DNA of 34,278 bases from contig JBBTSE010000009.1 of the NCBI GenBank assembly GCA_038064855.1, positions 1 through 34,278 of the forward strand. Direction: 5' to 3'. The notes beneath the pieces were generated by a model that had not been told where the DNA came from, made no database searches, and saw nothing but the letters and a program-made list of their open reading frames with translations. Position 1 is the stretch's first letter. Each line of letters begins with the position of its first letter. Shown piece after piece: positions 29,212 through 34,278 of the stretch. The position numbers and the translations under genes were made by a program. This DNA is from Patescibacteria group bacterium (GTDB taxonomy: Bacteria > Patescibacteriota > Minisyncoccia > Ryanbacterales > GWA2-47-10b).

Positions 29212-30381
29212 CTATCTTCGATACGATTGAGCGTTGTAGAGATCCCAAACCTCCAATGATTTTTTTGGAGTGCCGTCACTTTTTTGCAGTCCAGTATAGG
29301 CAAAGAAGTTCGCAAAATCACGCACGATGGGTGGGAATGACGCCGCGAGCTTATCAGAATCGATTGATGACCAGTTTGTGATAAACAAGAACTTTTTTTG
29401 TTGAGCGGTACGCAGGAGCATATTGATGTATTGTGTTTGTTCGGCTTCGGTAAACTCCCAGTTCATGAGATACGCACGGAAGTTTTGGCTTGGCATGCCG
29501 GTTTCCGCGATAGCCAGAGGTTTGCCAAACGCGAGTGCGGTATCAAAATATGAATCGGGTACAGGCGAGAGTTTACCACCAGTATACTCCCAGCCGTAGG
29601 GGTACGCTGAGAGGGCGATATAGTCGAGATACGGAAGGAGTGAGCGTATCTCCTGCTCCTGCGCGGTTTTGTCAGAGCCGTTGGGGAGGCCTTCGAGATG
29701 CGGCAACGAGAATGATGCCGAGATGAGAAGATTCGGATAGAGCTTTTTGAGTTCGGCATAGGTATGCTTGTGCAGTTCTTTGTACGCACGCCACGCTGAT
29801 TCATCTTTTGTCAGCGCGACATTGACTTCAATACCGATGACTAAATAATTTGGCTGATAGTGTGCAACAATGCGTTTTGCGTAGTTTGTGTATGCGCGTT
29901 TTACCTCCATACTATCGAGCGCATAAGTATTCCACGGGGCGGGGATTGCCATATTGTCTGCCGATCCCAGATACTTTGCCATCGCATCGCGCGAGTCCGC
30001 GAGCGGTGTAATCGCGACATACACAGCATGACCAGCGGGTGTTTTTGATTTTGAAAGATTCCAGTCATCCATTACATGTTTGGAAAACGCGCTGTCAGCA
30101 TACGCCTCAGGCCACGGTACACCCGCGTCATAATGATGCGCGAGAAGATCACCGTGCTCTCCTATAAATTTCCACATGTCATCGATTGCTTGTGCGGAGA
30201 AGTCAGGCGGCCAGCGTGTAAAGCCGAGATGGAATGATCGAGTAGTACTTGTTGGTGGGTCTAGCTTGACGGTCTTCCCACTCAAATCTGGTTCGTCAGG
30301 ATCTGATTCTTTATTCATGCCACCAAGTATAAGGATGATGATCAAGACAATACCTCCGTAGAAAAGTATTTTTCGTATCAT
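29212..30381 (-). CDS. Membrane-anchored glycosidase-like TIM-barrel protein
   Basis: This 389-residue protein has an N-terminal transmembrane anchor (about 6-21) and a short acidic linker, then an extracytoplasmic domain resembling clan GH-A glycosidases. The strand end VIGIEVNVAL (Glu185) matches an acid/base position, ISASFSLPHL and YIALSAYPYGWEY are typical barrel strands, and PLAIAETGMPS (Glu293) matches a nucleophile position, as in GH53-like enzymes. The substrate is unknown. The frame is open 11 codons further upstream, but the ATG at 30379-30381 is chosen because TATACT lies 6 nt before it and the anchor starts there. Confidence 0.8.
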   Translation of the reverse strand: MIRKILFYGGIVLIIILILGGMNKESDPDEPDLSGKTVKLDPPTSTTRSFHLGFTRWPPDFSAQAIDDMWKFIGEHGDLLAHHYDAGVPWPEAYADSAFSKHVMDDWNLSKSKTPAGHAVYVAITPLADSRDAMAKYLGSADNMAIPAPWNTYALDSMEVKRAYTNYAKRIVAHYQPNYLVIGIEVNVALTKDESAWRAYKELHKHTYAELKKLYPNLLISASFSLPHLEGLPNGSDKTAQEQEIRSLLPYLDYIALSAYPYGWEYTGGKLSPVPDSYFDTALAFGKPLAIAETGMPSQNFRAYLMNWEFTEAEQTQYINMLLRTAQQKKFLFITNWSSIDSDKLAASFPPIVRDFANFFAYTGLQKSDGTPKKSLEVWDLYNAQSYRR

Positions 30382-30387
30382 AGTATT

Positions 30388-30393
30388 AGTATA
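30388..30393 (-). promoter_or_regulatory. -10 element of the glycosidase-like gene
   Basis: On the minus strand TATACT lies 6 nt before the ATG. A possible -35 would lie inside the adjacent terminator hairpin, so terminator and promoter are packed together. Confidence 0.5.
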
Positions 30394-30400
30394 GGGCAAA

Positions 30401-30431
30401 AAATAAAGCGCCAATAGGCGCTTTATTTTTT
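30401..30431 (-). terminator. Bidirectional terminator upstream of the glycosidase-like gene
   Basis: A perfect 12-bp stem AAATAAAGCGCC (30401-30412) has an AATA loop and its complement at 30417-30428, with T-runs on both strands. On the minus strand it would stop transcripts from the GHKL cassette before the glycosidase-like promoter. Confidence 0.88.
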
Positions 30432-30432
30432 C

Positions 30433-30611
30433 TGACTGGCGGGGACGATGCCCGGAACTTTGAACCGAAAGTACGGCTCAAATTCGAGGATCTTGATAGA
30501 AGTATACAGAAACTACGGGCTATCTACAAAGTTCATCCGGAGTGGTTTGAGACACCGAAGCCCAAATCTGATAAAGGGCGAAACGCAGTCGATTATTCGG
30601 TGAAAGGATAA
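30433..30611 (+). pseudogene. Orphan C-terminal coding remnant
   Basis: About 57 codons are open with no plausible start codon, beginning at the terminator and ending in TAA at 30609-30611. The translation is protein-like (LKFEDLDRSIQKLRAIYKVHPEWFE, ending AVDYSVKG), suggesting the tail of a gene whose front is gone. The family is not recognised. Its place just before a DNA methyltransferase fragment on the same strand would fit a lost restriction endonuclease or another R-M partner, but that is inference. Confidence 0.35.
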
Positions 30612-30662: not shown

Positions 30663-30815
30663 ATGCTAGCTACTGCAACTATCATCAGAGTGTTCACAAC
30701 ATTGAAACCTCGCGAGGAGTGGTCTTTTCGCAGTGCGGGACGGTCGCAAACAACTGCTTTCACTCACGATTATCATCGCTATCCGGCAAAGTTTATTCCG
30801 CAAATTAATGGTTAA
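30663..30815 (+). pseudogene. DNA methyltransferase, N-terminal fragment
   Basis: Only 50 residues remain before a TAA at 30813-30815. The end, FTHDYHRYPAKFIPQI, matches the N-terminal motif of beta-class-type DNA (N4-cytosine/N6-adenine) methyltransferases, in which a TH-x-YHxYPAKF-x-PQ stretch precedes the AdoMet-binding core. The catalytic and AdoMet-binding motifs are missing. The fragment ends exactly where the convergent DUF6339-like gene ends (their stop codons overlap), so the rest was probably replaced when the neighbouring cassette arrived. Confidence 0.65.
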
Positions 30816-31543
30816 TCAACCAATGATTCCTTAAGGATATTTCTCAAATTTTTATCGTCGAGTGCTGGTAAAATTCTATAAGCACCGACAAAATTTAACC
30901 GACGCATTAGCGCACGAACTTTATCCTCTTTGAATTGTTCAAAATACTTTGGATTATTTGAAATAAAATCAAGCAGAACATGAACAAATGAGTCAGATTT
31001 ACCAAGAGAGCCGTCTAGTTGTCTTGTATACTCATAAAGTGCAAAAAATTCTCGCGTAAGTTCAAAAGGGTCCTCCCTTTTTTCATCGTAAGTAATATGT
31101 GCTCCCCACCAAAGTAAAGCGATACCATGGCGTAAATACGCTGTGGTTGTCTGTGTGCCTACAAACCAGTGTTGGGCAATGTATCGTGAACGTTTTTCTT
31201 CTGACTGGTCTGCAACCGGCCATCGTTTTGCCATATAGTCCATAAATGGCACATGAGCTAGCCACGCCCACAGTCGTTGATCCGATGCCATAGTACGATC
31301 TAATCCACGCAACGACTCATAAAGAGCTCGCGCATTTTCAAATGCGGTAAGATCGGCATCAAGTTTTGGTAATGCTTCAATTTCAAGAATAGTGTCTCTG
31401 ACATCGGACGCAGAAAAACTTGGGGCTTTGCCCGCAACATATCCACGAATTGCATCTTCGCTCTGAAGCCGTTGGCCCAGTCTTTGAAGAAATGGTGTAG
31501 TAAATACTTTAATGCGTTCCATAATTTTAATCTTCTGGCTCAT
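30812..31543 (-). CDS. DUF6339-like protein, third gene of the GHKL cassette
   Basis: This 243-residue soluble, mostly helical protein has a conserved-looking centre: LWAWLAHVPFMDYMAKRW, then RYIAQHWFVG, then RHGIALLWWGAHITYDEKREDPFELT, matching the W-rich core and YDE-x-R-x-DPYELT motif I associate with DUF6339 (from memory, not searched). The function is unknown. The ATG at 31541-31543 overlaps the upstream stop by 17 nt; an alternative ATG at 31520-31522 lies just after it. It is AT-richer than the chromosomal core around it. Confidence 0.75.
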   Translation of the reverse strand: MSQKIKIMERIKVFTTPFLQRLGQRLQSEDAIRGYVAGKAPSFSASDVRDTILEIEALPKLDADLTAFENARALYESLRGLDRTMASDQRLWAWLAHVPFMDYMAKRWPVADQSEEKRSRYIAQHWFVGTQTTTAYLRHGIALLWWGAHITYDEKREDPFELTREFFALYEYTRQLDGSLGKSDSFVHVLLDFISNNPKYFEQFKEDKVRALMRRLNFVGAYRILPALDDKNLRNILKESLVD

Positions 31544-32366
31544 CTATTATTTCTTTTAATCCTGACAACATGCGCTCGACCGGTCTTTTTAATATAGTTT
31601 GCACAATGTTAGAGATATTTTCCTTACCCCACTCAATATTTGCTTTTTCCGCGCGTTCTTTCAGAACGCTGAACCACATAAATTGTTGGTGGTATTCAGG
31701 ATCCTCAAAAGCATATTGCATAGCAATGAGAATGGCGGGAAAGGCAACACCCGATTGAATTATTGAATTTAACTTTTCTGTTTTTGATCCTGCGAAAATT
31801 GCTAGTTTGTCATAATCAACACTAGGCAATCTCACGATTATCTTATCTTGGTTTGGTTCTACAGTCATCGGACCGGAAAGATGTGGGTCACGGACCACCT
31901 CAAGAAAATCAGAAATGTTTCTTGTTCCGGCATATCTCTTTTTGGCATCAAATTTTTCCGATTCGCCGTCAGCAAGAATATCACCCGGAACAAGATTGAC
32001 GGTGGCGCCCTCATAATCAGAGTGAGCCACATTGTTTGCGTAATCTGAAATGTTTTTTGTTGCGACAGCAAAATATCCCAAGGAGACAACGCCTCGGAGA
32101 TCTACTGCCGGAACAGAAACCTCGAATTGGCTGTCTGTAAAAAGATAACATCGGCGAAAGTGGGTAGCAATGCATGTAATTTGCAATACATATTTTGCCT
32201 GTCTACTATCTATCAGGTCTTGGATTGTCTTATTATCCAAATTAAAATTACCACGAATAACAATAGTATCCGGTCCTAGATTGACTTCAACGATTGGTGA
32301 GTATGTGCCAGAAATGGCATCGCCATCACCAAGCACTGGCCAAGGATAATGTGAGGTTATATTCAT
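31527..32366 (-). CDS. Conserved beta-rich protein, second gene of the GHKL cassette
   Basis: This 279-residue protein has no signal peptide or membrane segment. The first 170 residues alternate short strands (IVEVNLGPDTIVIRGNFNL, YVLQITCIATHFRRCYLF, FEVSVPAVDLRGVVSLGYFAVA) and include a GDILADGE motif; the C-terminal 110 residues are mainly helical (SGVAFPAILIAMQYAFEDPEY). The layout resembles conserved hypothetical proteins found beside GHKL ATPases and DUF6339 genes, but no function is established. It starts within the stop of the ATPase gene (ATGA overlap) and overlaps the DUF6339-like gene, so the three are translated as one unit. Confidence 0.78.
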   Translation of the reverse strand: MNITSHYPWPVLGDGDAISGTYSPIVEVNLGPDTIVIRGNFNLDNKTIQDLIDSRQAKYVLQITCIATHFRRCYLFTDSQFEVSVPAVDLRGVVSLGYFAVATKNISDYANNVAHSDYEGATVNLVPGDILADGESEKFDAKKRYAGTRNISDFLEVVRDPHLSGPMTVEPNQDKIIVRLPSVDYDKLAIFAGSKTEKLNSIIQSGVAFPAILIAMQYAFEDPEYHQQFMWFSVLKERAEKANIEWGKENISNIVQTILKRPVERMLSGLKEIIDEPED

Positions 32367-34270
32367 GGCAGAATTCGTAAATTAGGATCTAGGGCGACAA
32401 TCCACGGCTCTTTTAACTGAACAGAAAGATATGCGCTCCCTGAATCATCCAAAGAAAAGTCACAATGTTCTTGCCCAAGCTTAACTATTTTTGTTCCTTT
32501 TTCCCCAACAACATTAGATATAGAAAGCAGTTCGTCACTTCCATCGTCTGCGCGAGCATACAACCTAATTCGAACTACGGGCTTCTCGCTTTTATTATCG
32601 GTATGAATAATGACACGATATAATCGTCCATCTTTCGTTTTATTTCCTACAATGTACCGAACTGTTGCGTTCTCCAATTCTTGGGATTTAACCGATTTGC
32701 CTTTCTCATCGGGTTTCGGTAGCGGATTCGGTACACCGTATGGTCTTGGAGGGGTAGGAGGGCTTGGGGGTGTCGGCGGATTTTCTGTACGCACTTTTAT
32801 ATATCTTGCGACTCTGATGGGTCGTATTGTATGGAATGAGCTTGCTGTGTCCTCTACATCAGAGCCAATCTCAATACCAGTTTCTTCTTCTACAACCTCC
32901 TTTACTTGATTTTTTGCATCACCGATATTTGCACTACTCCCTTCTTTCGCTGGTACGCCAATATGTTCTGCCAAGCCCGGAATGCTTGTTGATTGCGACA
33001 CCGGAGCATATAACAGGCCCCCCAACCCGCCGGCTATAAAAAGTTCTAGTTCATTGTAAGCAGTTTTTCCATCCTCGACATGGTGTCCGTGTTCGTCTTT
33101 CCAGTTATGCCAATCCCACTCTGTATGTGCGGGATTTTCCATCTTCCGAAGTATCTCACTACCTTTTTTATTCCTACATTCAAAAATTGCTGCATATTTT
33201 GTTAGATGAGATGATCTCCCCTTGAAGTCAACTATCATGCCAGTGTTCCTAACAAGTGCAGTTTTGTTTGGATATGGTAAGTCGTCAGAAGTGCGACCAT
33301 AGAAGGAAACTTCTCCAAGCACATCAGGACTTTCGGTCAATTTCTTCTCGGAGTTGGTGTAAGCATCAAAAAAATGCAGTGGGTTGTGTGGTTTGAAAGA
33401 TTTTTTTTCGTCTGGCGAAAAAAACTCACTCATCCGTTCGCGTAAATTAGTAGCATTAAACTCTTTATCGCCAACTTTTACAGTAAGGATCCCCCAATGT
33501 ATTGATGGCCAAAACCAACCCAAAACTGCGCGACAAATGGTATCTTGCCAGTCGTTACTACCTAGAAAATTAACAACCCAAATATCAGTGCCCTTATCGC
33601 TTCTCTGGAACATCTCTGGAATATCCTTTTTATTCTGTACGGGTAATTGTCTAGGGAGTCCGAAAGTTCCGTTACCTTGCATCAATTCGTTATCTTGGTC
33701 GAATGACAAGAGGCGTAGCTTACCGGCAAATTTAACTCCATCGTCCGTAACAGTTGAAACGAAAATAGTTCTAAAGAGTGAATTAGCAAAGAAAGCTCCC
33801 TTACCTAATCCAAATGCGCCTCCAGCCCCTGCTTCACCAGCATTAAATCCAACACCTCGCATGAACATAAACCAGCGGCCATCATTGGTGTCGCCAGTTA
33901 AACCGCAAGTATTGTAGTCGGCAATACGCAATAGTGGAATGCTTGCGCCACTTTTTAAAACATCTGCTTGCGACTTATAATGTTTTGCCGCGGGGACAAC
34001 CTTTCTTTTTTCAGCGTATTCAGCACACTTTCTAAATATCTGTTCTAGCCGTTCAGGATTTGGCAATGATCCAACTGGCACATTCTTGAGATCAAACTCT
34101 GCTCGTGCTGGCGATTTTCCGGGAAGTCTGGCATCGATAATATTTTGGATGGCCTCTCTAATCAAACTATCCGTGAGATTTCCTTCGTATGCAAAATTTG
34201 CAGCTACAGGATCATTAAACCCCGCGACATCACCGCCATCTGTTTTACCAAAATGATAATCTGTTGCCAT
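32363..34270 (-). CDS. GHKL-type (HSP90/MutL/MORC-like) ATPase, first gene of a probable defence cassette
   Basis: This 635-residue protein has the Bergerat ATP-binding fold near its N-terminus: N-box LIREAIQNIIDA (Glu39, Asn43, Asp46), a D-x-G type loop RIADYNTCGLTG (Asp118, Gly123), and the Gly-rich lid GAGGAFGLGKGAFFANS (148-164) followed by RTIFVST. The middle region (about 180-480) resembles the transducer part of such ATPases only in a general way. A Pro-rich linker (PPTPPSPPTPPRP) near residue 495 leads to a beta-rich C-terminal domain (about 525-635). No helicase or nuclease motif is seen. The start lies 8 nt from the window end (TATAAACT precedes the ATG), so upstream partners are unseen. 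Confidence 0.85.
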   Translation of the reverse strand: MATDYHFGKTDGGDVAGFNDPVAANFAYEGNLTDSLIREAIQNIIDARLPGKSPARAEFDLKNVPVGSLPNPERLEQIFRKCAEYAEKRKVVPAAKHYKSQADVLKSGASIPLLRIADYNTCGLTGDTNDGRWFMFMRGVGFNAGEAGAGGAFGLGKGAFFANSLFRTIFVSTVTDDGVKFAGKLRLLSFDQDNELMQGNGTFGLPRQLPVQNKKDIPEMFQRSDKGTDIWVVNFLGSNDWQDTICRAVLGWFWPSIHWGILTVKVGDKEFNATNLRERMSEFFSPDEKKSFKPHNPLHFFDAYTNSEKKLTESPDVLGEVSFYGRTSDDLPYPNKTALVRNTGMIVDFKGRSSHLTKYAAIFECRNKKGSEILRKMENPAHTEWDWHNWKDEHGHHVEDGKTAYNELELFIAGGLGGLLYAPVSQSTSIPGLAEHIGVPAKEGSSANIGDAKNQVKEVVEEETGIEIGSDVEDTASSFHTIRPIRVARYIKVRTENPPTPPSPPTPPRPYGVPNPLPKPDEKGKSVKSQELENATVRYIVGNKTKDGRLYRVIIHTDNKSEKPVVRIRLYARADDGSDELLSISNVVGEKGTKIVKLGQEHCDFSLDDSGSAYLSVQLKEPWIVALDPNLRILP

Positions 34271-34278
34271 AGTTTATA

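What the first reader, a model, noticed from the sequence alone, without database searches (positions are those of the whole stretch)
30663..34278. Three-gene GHKL-ATPase / beta-rich protein / DUF6339-like cassette: candidate uncharacterised defence system
The sequence shows three minus-strand genes with overlapping start/stop codons (ATGA, then a 17-nt overlap). The first has a full Bergerat-fold ATP site; the other two have no known activity. The cassette is AT-richer than its surroundings and abuts a truncated DNA methyltransferase. GHKL (MutL/MORC-like) ATPases are known from restriction-modification and other anti-phage islands. Inference: this is a compact ATPase-sensor system in which the ATPase signals to the DUF6339-like protein, perhaps as effector. 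No nuclease, helicase or methylase motif is present in the intact genes, so the mechanism would be new or the missing parts lie beyond the window end.
Basis: partly seen in the sequence, partly recalled or inferred. Interest (0 to 1): 0.78.

Follow-up and report, generated by a model that had tools for sequence, protein, structure and literature searches.

The report
R-M-linked GHKL ATPase defence cassette (PDC-M33)
Three overlapping bacterial genes at the edge of this contig form an already catalogued but untested candidate anti-phage cassette; in almost every relative it sits beside a DNA-methylating restriction system, often behind a tiny, previously unnoted fourth gene.

Summary
The trio is real and correctly placed: C (DUF6339, 243 aa), B (279 aa) and A (GHKL ATPase, 635 aa), minus strand, with 17- and 4-base overlaps. 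It is not uncharted: all three match PADLOC's phage-defence candidate PDC-M33 (A 1.8e-87, B 1.4e-49, C 1.9e-41). I found it in Patescibacteria and on plasmids of Bacillota, Actinomycetota, Deinococcota, Cyanobacteriota and haloarchaea. Beside it was a C5-cytosine methyltransferase in 14 of 16 loci with usable flank, often with Vsr and a type II restriction enzyme; the other two have N6-type methyltransferases. A carries GHKL motifs plus an invariant ExxxH, the signature published for 'paraMORC2' ATPases of restriction-modification operons. B and C have no conserved catalytic residues, so 'DUF6339 is the effector' is not supported. Eight trio loci have a small gene D (72-85 aa) just upstream of A; the window's last 8 bases match the tail of D in relative L002, so the cassette is cut by the contig end. 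D also leads other GHKL families, 18 of 21 loci in all. The window's cassette is 89.6% identical in DNA to one in another class: recent transfer. Best reading: a mobile ATPase accessory module of type II restriction-modification loci. Phage defence is inferred, untested.

The parts
32363..34270 (-). A: GHKL ATPase, PDC-M33A, paraMORC2-like (635 aa). Motifs R38-E39-x-x-Q42-N43-x-x-D46-A, D118-x-x-T121-x-G123, G151-x-x-G154-x-G156-K157, G227-T228, E378-x-x-x-H382; Pro-rich linker ~495-520, small C-terminal region
   Evidence: PADLOC PDC-M33A 1.8e-87; alignment of 15 homologues; hhalign to MutL 49% and HtpG 42% against <2% for unrelated controls
31527..32366 (-). B: PDC-M33B, 279 aa, starts with 'YPWPVLGDGDA' near its N-terminus; no Pfam family; ATGA overlap with A
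   Evidence: PADLOC PDC-M33B 1.4e-49; alignment A2; no Pfam, PDB or catalytic-residue signal
30812..31543 (-). C: DUF6339 / PDC-M33C, 243 aa, Trp-rich; 17-nt overlap with B
   Evidence: PF19866 1.3e-47; PDC-M33C 1.9e-41; only A86, W92, L95, W145, W146, T163 conserved
34271..34278 (-). Probable last bases of gene D: TA|TAA|ACT before the ATPase ATG, against TTA|TAA|ACC in L002; the rest of D lies beyond the contig end
   Evidence: direct comparison; D upstream of A in eight relatives
30663..30806 (+). 5' remnant (48 codons) of a type II DNA methyltransferase, convergent to the trio, truncated where the cassette begins; neighbour, not part of the cassette
   Evidence: DNA similarity to the L003 cassette starts at 30821

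Best explanation
The three genes are a PDC-M33 cassette: a mobile GHKL (paraMORC2-type) ATPase module, with B and C as non-enzymatic partner subunits and, beyond the contig end, a small fourth protein D, that accompanies type II (mostly 5-methylcytosine) restriction-modification systems. Proposed mechanism: ATP binding dimerises A into a clamp on DNA, as in MutL, MORC and Hsp90 relatives; B, C and D assemble on it and tell self from non-self DNA or engaged restriction sites; the complex loops or holds the DNA and licenses the neighbouring nuclease, so restriction is strengthened or resists evasion. Shown here: gene content, ATPase motifs, co-inheritance, R-M linkage in relatives, recent horizontal transfer. 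Inferred: clamp mechanism, subunit roles, phage defence. In this genome the R-M partner was not seen, because the contig stops at the ATPase start and no C5 methyltransferase was detected elsewhere in the assembly.
For: PADLOC PDC-M33A/B/C. GHKL motifs and an invariant ExxxH in 15/15 homologues, the feature PMC2292703 gives for paraMORC2, a family it places in R-M operons with DNA methylases and Vsr. MutL/HtpG profile match against controls. C5 methyltransferase near the trio in 14 of 16 loci, N6-type methyltransferases in the other two. Vsr in L002, L011, L016, L018, L021; EcoRII-C, MutH/Sau3AI, AlwI-like and other restriction enzymes. In L022 the methyltransferase start overlaps the end of C by 4 nt. 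Background: roughly 110 C5 methyltransferases in 380 Patescibacteria genomes, about 360 Mb (my estimate). A/B, A/C, B/C distances correlate (r 0.75, 0.74, 0.61; permutation p 0.0002), and A, B, C against the methyltransferase r 0.53-0.57, p<=0.0034. Transfer: 89.6% DNA identity over 2772 bp to a genome outside this class whose SecY is 50% identical.
Against: No functional data found for any member; 'DUF6339' and 'PDC-M33' give no paper in the library. In the window no R-M partner is visible and no C5 methyltransferase was found in the 805-kb assembly. Restriction enzymes and methyltransferases vary between loci, so the module may be an island neighbour rather than a subunit. Distance correlations are confounded by host relatedness and by saturated distances. 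No usable structure: AlphaFold2 mean pLDDT 43 for C and 30 for A. D was not detected in Lactobacillales, haloarchaeal or cyanobacterial trio loci. No paraMORC2 sequence from the 2008 paper was aligned directly.
Confidence: 0.55

Rival explanations
1. Stand-alone anti-phage system: A senses infection through ATP, B transmits, and DUF6339 (C) is the effector; R-M genes are only island neighbours.
For: Listed on its own as PDC-M33 in PADLOC; Shedu, AbiGI/GII, DISARM-like, Pycsar and SAVED genes also occur near relatives; no single restriction enzyme is shared.
Against: C and B show no conserved catalytic residues; the association is specifically with DNA methyltransferases, often next to the module on the same strand.
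Confidence: 0.2
2. R-M guard module, PrrC-like: stays silent while the restriction system works and kills or arrests the cell when a phage inhibits it.
For: Tight R-M linkage; PMC3710099 proposes this role for paraMORC-HEPN fusions in R-M loci.
Against: No toxin-like or RNase residues conserved in B or C. One short weak match of C to a Csx1/Csm6 model (E 4e-4, 43 residues) is not enough.
Confidence: 0.13
3. Repair accessory of 5-methylcytosine: a MutL-like ATPase that helps Vsr or a mismatch glycosylase mend T:G mismatches caused by the C5 methyltransferase.
For: Vsr adjacent in five loci; an HhH-GPD glycosylase follows the C5 methyltransferase in Halomicrobium; MutL assists Vsr in E. coli (established knowledge).
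Against: Several loci lack Vsr; Lactococcus loci carry Dam-like adenine methyltransferases instead.
Confidence: 0.07
4. Decaying or inactive remnant in this genome: the R-M part was lost and the trio is hitchhiking.
For: Truncated methyltransferase beside it; a truncated PLD-helicase gene beside the L003 copy; no C5 methyltransferase found in the assembly.
Against: All three frames intact with conserved motifs, and kept intact in L003 except where its contig ends.
Confidence: 0.05

Closest known systems
PDC-M33 (PADLOC-DB 2.0.0 phage-defence candidate)
   Same: All three genes, order and lengths; full-length profile matches
   Different: No PADLOC model matches gene D and no mechanism is given; R-M linkage and D come from this work
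paraMORC2 family of R-M-associated GHKL ATPases (Iyer, Abhiman and Aravind 2008, PMC2292703)
   Same: N-terminal GHKL motifs, invariant ExxxH, neighbourhood of cytosine methylases and Vsr, sporadic spread in cyanobacteria and Gram-positives
   Different: The passages read do not describe B, DUF6339 or D; S5 domain not confirmed by structure; sequences not compared directly
Prokaryotic MORC / HATPase_c_3 ATPases next to C5 methyltransferases (e.g. L043, L083)
   Same: GHKL ATPase beside a C5 methyltransferase; L083 also has D upstream
   Different: A is not recognised by PF13589 and hhalign to L043 is at background (1.5%)
VcSduA, Shedu nuclease with a GHKL domain (PMC12137116)
   Same: GHKL ATPase in a demonstrated anti-phage protein where ATPase and nuclease are both needed
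   Different: No DUF4263 nuclease domain in A; separate partner genes instead

Membership tests
PDC-M33 (PADLOC) | Homologues of PDC-M33A, B and C encoded together | tested here: met
   E 1.8e-87, 1.4e-49, 1.9e-41; overlapping same-strand genes
PDC-M33 (PADLOC) | Anti-phage activity | not testable with these tools
   No assay; no paper found
DUF6339 (PF19866) | Profile match above gathering score | tested here: met
   162.3 bits against 23.2
GHKL / Bergerat ATPase | N-box, DxGxG-like, G2 box and GT motifs | tested here: met
   Invariant E39/D46, D118/G123, G151/G154/G156, G227/T228; N43 14/15; MutL/HtpG profile match against controls. Pfam GHKL models gave no hit
paraMORC2 | Conserved ExxxH in the C-terminal part of the S5 domain | tested here: met
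   E378 and H382 in 15/15; wording in PMC2292703. The S5 placement itself was not shown
paraMORC2 | S5-fold domain after the GHKL domain | tested here: inconclusive
   AlphaFold2 model unusable, pLDDT 30
paraMORC2 | R-M gene neighbourhood | tested here: met
   14/16 relatives with a C5 methyltransferase, 16/16 with a DNA methyltransferase. In the window itself only a convergent methyltransferase remnant
MORC family proper | Specific GhXhhpXXRhl motif | not tested
   Motif not searched; hhalign to a prokaryotic MORC-type protein at background
Shedu with GHKL domain | DUF4263 PD-(D/E)xK domain in the ATPase protein | tested here: not met
   No Pfam match in A at E<=1
PrrC-like R-M guard | Toxin or RNase active site in a partner protein | tested here: not met
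   No conserved catalytic residue in B or C

The most novel reading that the evidence does not exclude
The small gene D is a portable partner of prokaryotic MORC-type ATPases in general: one conserved small-protein family (about 70-90 aa) that precedes several unrelated GHKL ATPase families, each with its own partner proteins, in R-M and defence loci. PDC-M33 would then be one branch of a wider D-GHKL class in which D is the shared loader, inhibitor or trigger of the ATPase.
Probability: 0.35. Interest if true: 0.7.

Novelty: new member of a known kind. Interest (0 to 1): 0.45.

Why it matters
Bacterial relatives of MORC and MutL have been tied to restriction-modification since 2008, yet what the ATPase does there is unknown. 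This cassette offers a compact version (A, B, C, D) found on plasmids of tractable bacteria beside identifiable restriction systems, so the question becomes testable. The linkage suggests PDC-M33 should be assayed with its R-M neighbours and with gene D. The D-GHKL pairing could unify several candidate defence systems and hint at how MORC-type ATPases are controlled.

Tried and rejected
AlphaFold2 for C (single sequence, pLDDT 43) and A (three sequences, pLDDT 30): unusable, so no fold search was run. PDB profile searches with A and B: no credible match. Pfam on every member of A and B: nothing credible. NCBIfam and PHROGs: only chance hits. One unannotated 'phage' record, MT837792, carries the trio plus a C5 methyltransferase, but I do not count it as proof of a phage origin. 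Literature searches for PDC-M33 and DUF6339: none. L014 (a weak C-terminal hit in G328) showed none of the genes and was dropped. ORF 30399-30611 has no Pfam match and only weak local tblastn hits. I first took D to be specific to the trio; wider searches showed it is not.

Full report
OBSERVATION. The cassette is AT-richer than most of the contig. The window is an entire contig, C9 of an 805-kb, 11-contig Patescibacteria assembly, and ends 8 bases before the start codon of A.

WHAT THE PROTEINS ARE. C is DUF6339 (PF19866, 1.3e-47). All three match PADLOC's candidate system PDC-M33 over nearly full length, so the cassette was catalogued before, without function; neither name occurs in the paper library. 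A has no Pfam hit, but across 15 homologues the residues RExxQN(14/15)xxD, DxxTxG, GxxGxG, GT, R341, M345 and E378xxxH382 are invariant. A profile of A aligns with MutL (49%, E 1.8e-4) and HtpG (42%) through the second and third motifs, while SecY, MutS, PEP synthase, a C5 methyltransferase set and a restriction enzyme score below 2%; one prokaryotic MORC-type protein (L043) also scored at that background level. The conserved ExxxH is the feature given for the paraMORC2 family in PMC2292703, a family described there in R-M operons with cytosine methylases and Vsr. I regard A as paraMORC2-like; I could not align it with that paper's own sequences. B and C keep only structural-looking residues (B: P8, P10, R71, G128, A132, W231; C: A86, W92, L95, W145, W146, T163), which argues against either being an enzyme.

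CONSERVATION AND CONTEXT. The trio recurs in Patescibacteria (L002, L003, L011, L012) and on plasmids of Deinococcus, Arthrobacter, Paenarthrobacter, Priestia, Planococcus, Ligilactobacillus, Lactococcus, Synechococcus and four haloarchaea. The haloarchaeal and cyanobacterial B proteins are diverged, L011 is cut before C, and some copies carry frame breaks (Paenarthrobacter C, Haloplanus A). In 380 Patescibacteria genomes, DUF6339 was found in three and each has A beside it. With home-made profiles, 14 of 16 loci with usable flank carry a C5 methyltransferase within about 5 kb (L002, L011, L012, L016-L019, L021-L023, L025, L035-L037). The other two, Lactococcus and Ligilactobacillus, have AlwI plus two Dam-like methyltransferases and an N6 methylase with an S subunit. 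For background, one search found roughly 110 C5 methyltransferases in 380 Patescibacteria genomes (about 360 Mb, my estimate), so a random 2-kb stretch would have one with a chance near 6e-4, whereas all three Patescibacteria loci with upstream sequence do. This ignores clustering in defence islands. Restriction enzymes vary: EcoRII-C, MutH/Sau3AI, AlwI-like, NOV_C, a GHKL-containing type II enzyme. In Synechococcus the methyltransferase start overlaps the end of C by 4 nt.

A FOURTH GENE. Directly upstream of A in eight loci lies a small ORF D (72-85 aa) with a common pattern RLAExR...LGNLxNxxNYxY...IF..IE..L. No Pfam or PADLOC model matches it. The window's last 8 bases read TA-TAA-ACT before the ATG, against TTA-TAA-ACC in L002, where TTA-TAA ends D: the window very probably contains the last bases of D. 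D is not exclusive to the trio: in 380 Patescibacteria genomes ten have it. In L013, L080, L083, L084 and L086 the next gene, and in L081 and L085 the next but one, reads as a GHKL ATPase; only L081 and L083 are supported by a Pfam match (HATPase_c_3), L083 above its cut-off, and the rest by motifs or by similarity to the A family. Agrobacterium, Ensifer and Dinoroseobacter plasmids show the same, by motifs. Exceptions are L082 (Fic next) and two weak hits, L090 and L091. In total 18 of 21 D loci precede a GHKL gene. D was not detected in Lactobacillales, haloarchaeal or cyanobacterial trio loci.

MOBILITY. Over 2772 bp the cassette is 89.6% identical in DNA to L003, a Jacksonbacteria genome (G298) placed outside this genome's class, whose SecY is only 50% identical. 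Similarity stops at 30821, inside the last codons of C. On the other side of that junction the window has 48 codons of a convergent methyltransferase gene, and L003 has a truncated convergent PLD-helicase gene. The cassette thus moved recently and lies against broken R-M genes in both genomes. Both contigs break in or next to A, so chimeric assembly cannot be fully excluded.

MECHANISM. Shown: ATPase motifs, gene linkage, correlated A, B, C and methyltransferase distances (confounded by host relatedness). From established knowledge of MutL, Hsp90 and MORC: ATP-driven dimer clamps. Inferred: B, C and D are partner subunits, and the complex acts on DNA together with the neighbouring restriction enzyme or Vsr. 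My confidence is about 0.97 that this is PDC-M33, about 0.75 that it is an R-M-linked module, about 0.4 for the clamp mechanism, and about 0.7 that its role is defence.

LIMITS. No structure could be obtained, no function is known, and in this genome no C5 methyltransferase was detected in the assembly, so it may be an orphan copy or the partner may lie in the gap.

Noticed in passing
L080, L081, L083-L086, L013, L087-L089: Gene D precedes GHKL ATPases of several other families, with partners such as a SIR2-like protein by motif (L080), a shared 215-233 aa protein (L081, L085, L088) or a 213-228 aa protein (L013, L084, L086).
   Followed up: partly
window 30663-30806: 5' remnant of a type II DNA methyltransferase, cut at codon 48 where the cassette begins.
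   Followed up: yes
window 30398-30431: Perfect 15-bp inverted repeat with T/A runs overlapping the start of the 29212-30414 minus-strand ORF; may be a terminator-like hairpin.
   Followed up: no
window 29212-30414: 400-aa minus-strand ORF with no Pfam match and no homologue in 53 other relatives searched: a lineage-specific, possibly exported protein.
   Followed up: partly
L003 2712-3869: Truncated PLD/helicase-type gene convergent with the trio in the Jacksonbacteria genome.
   Followed up: partly
L025 and L037: Halomicrobium and Halobacterium plasmids carry two divergent copies of A and B-like genes around a C5 methyltransferase; in L025 an HhH-GPD glycosylase gene follows it.
   Followed up: no
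L035, L036: In two haloarchaeal plasmids the trio lies between a helicase / Zn-binding or hypothetical / phospholipase D gene run that looks DISARM-like and a C5 methyltransferase.
   Followed up: no
L016 17925-20551: Deinococcus plasmid: nucleotidyltransferase plus SAVED-domain gene, CBASS-like, a few kb from the trio.
   Followed up: no
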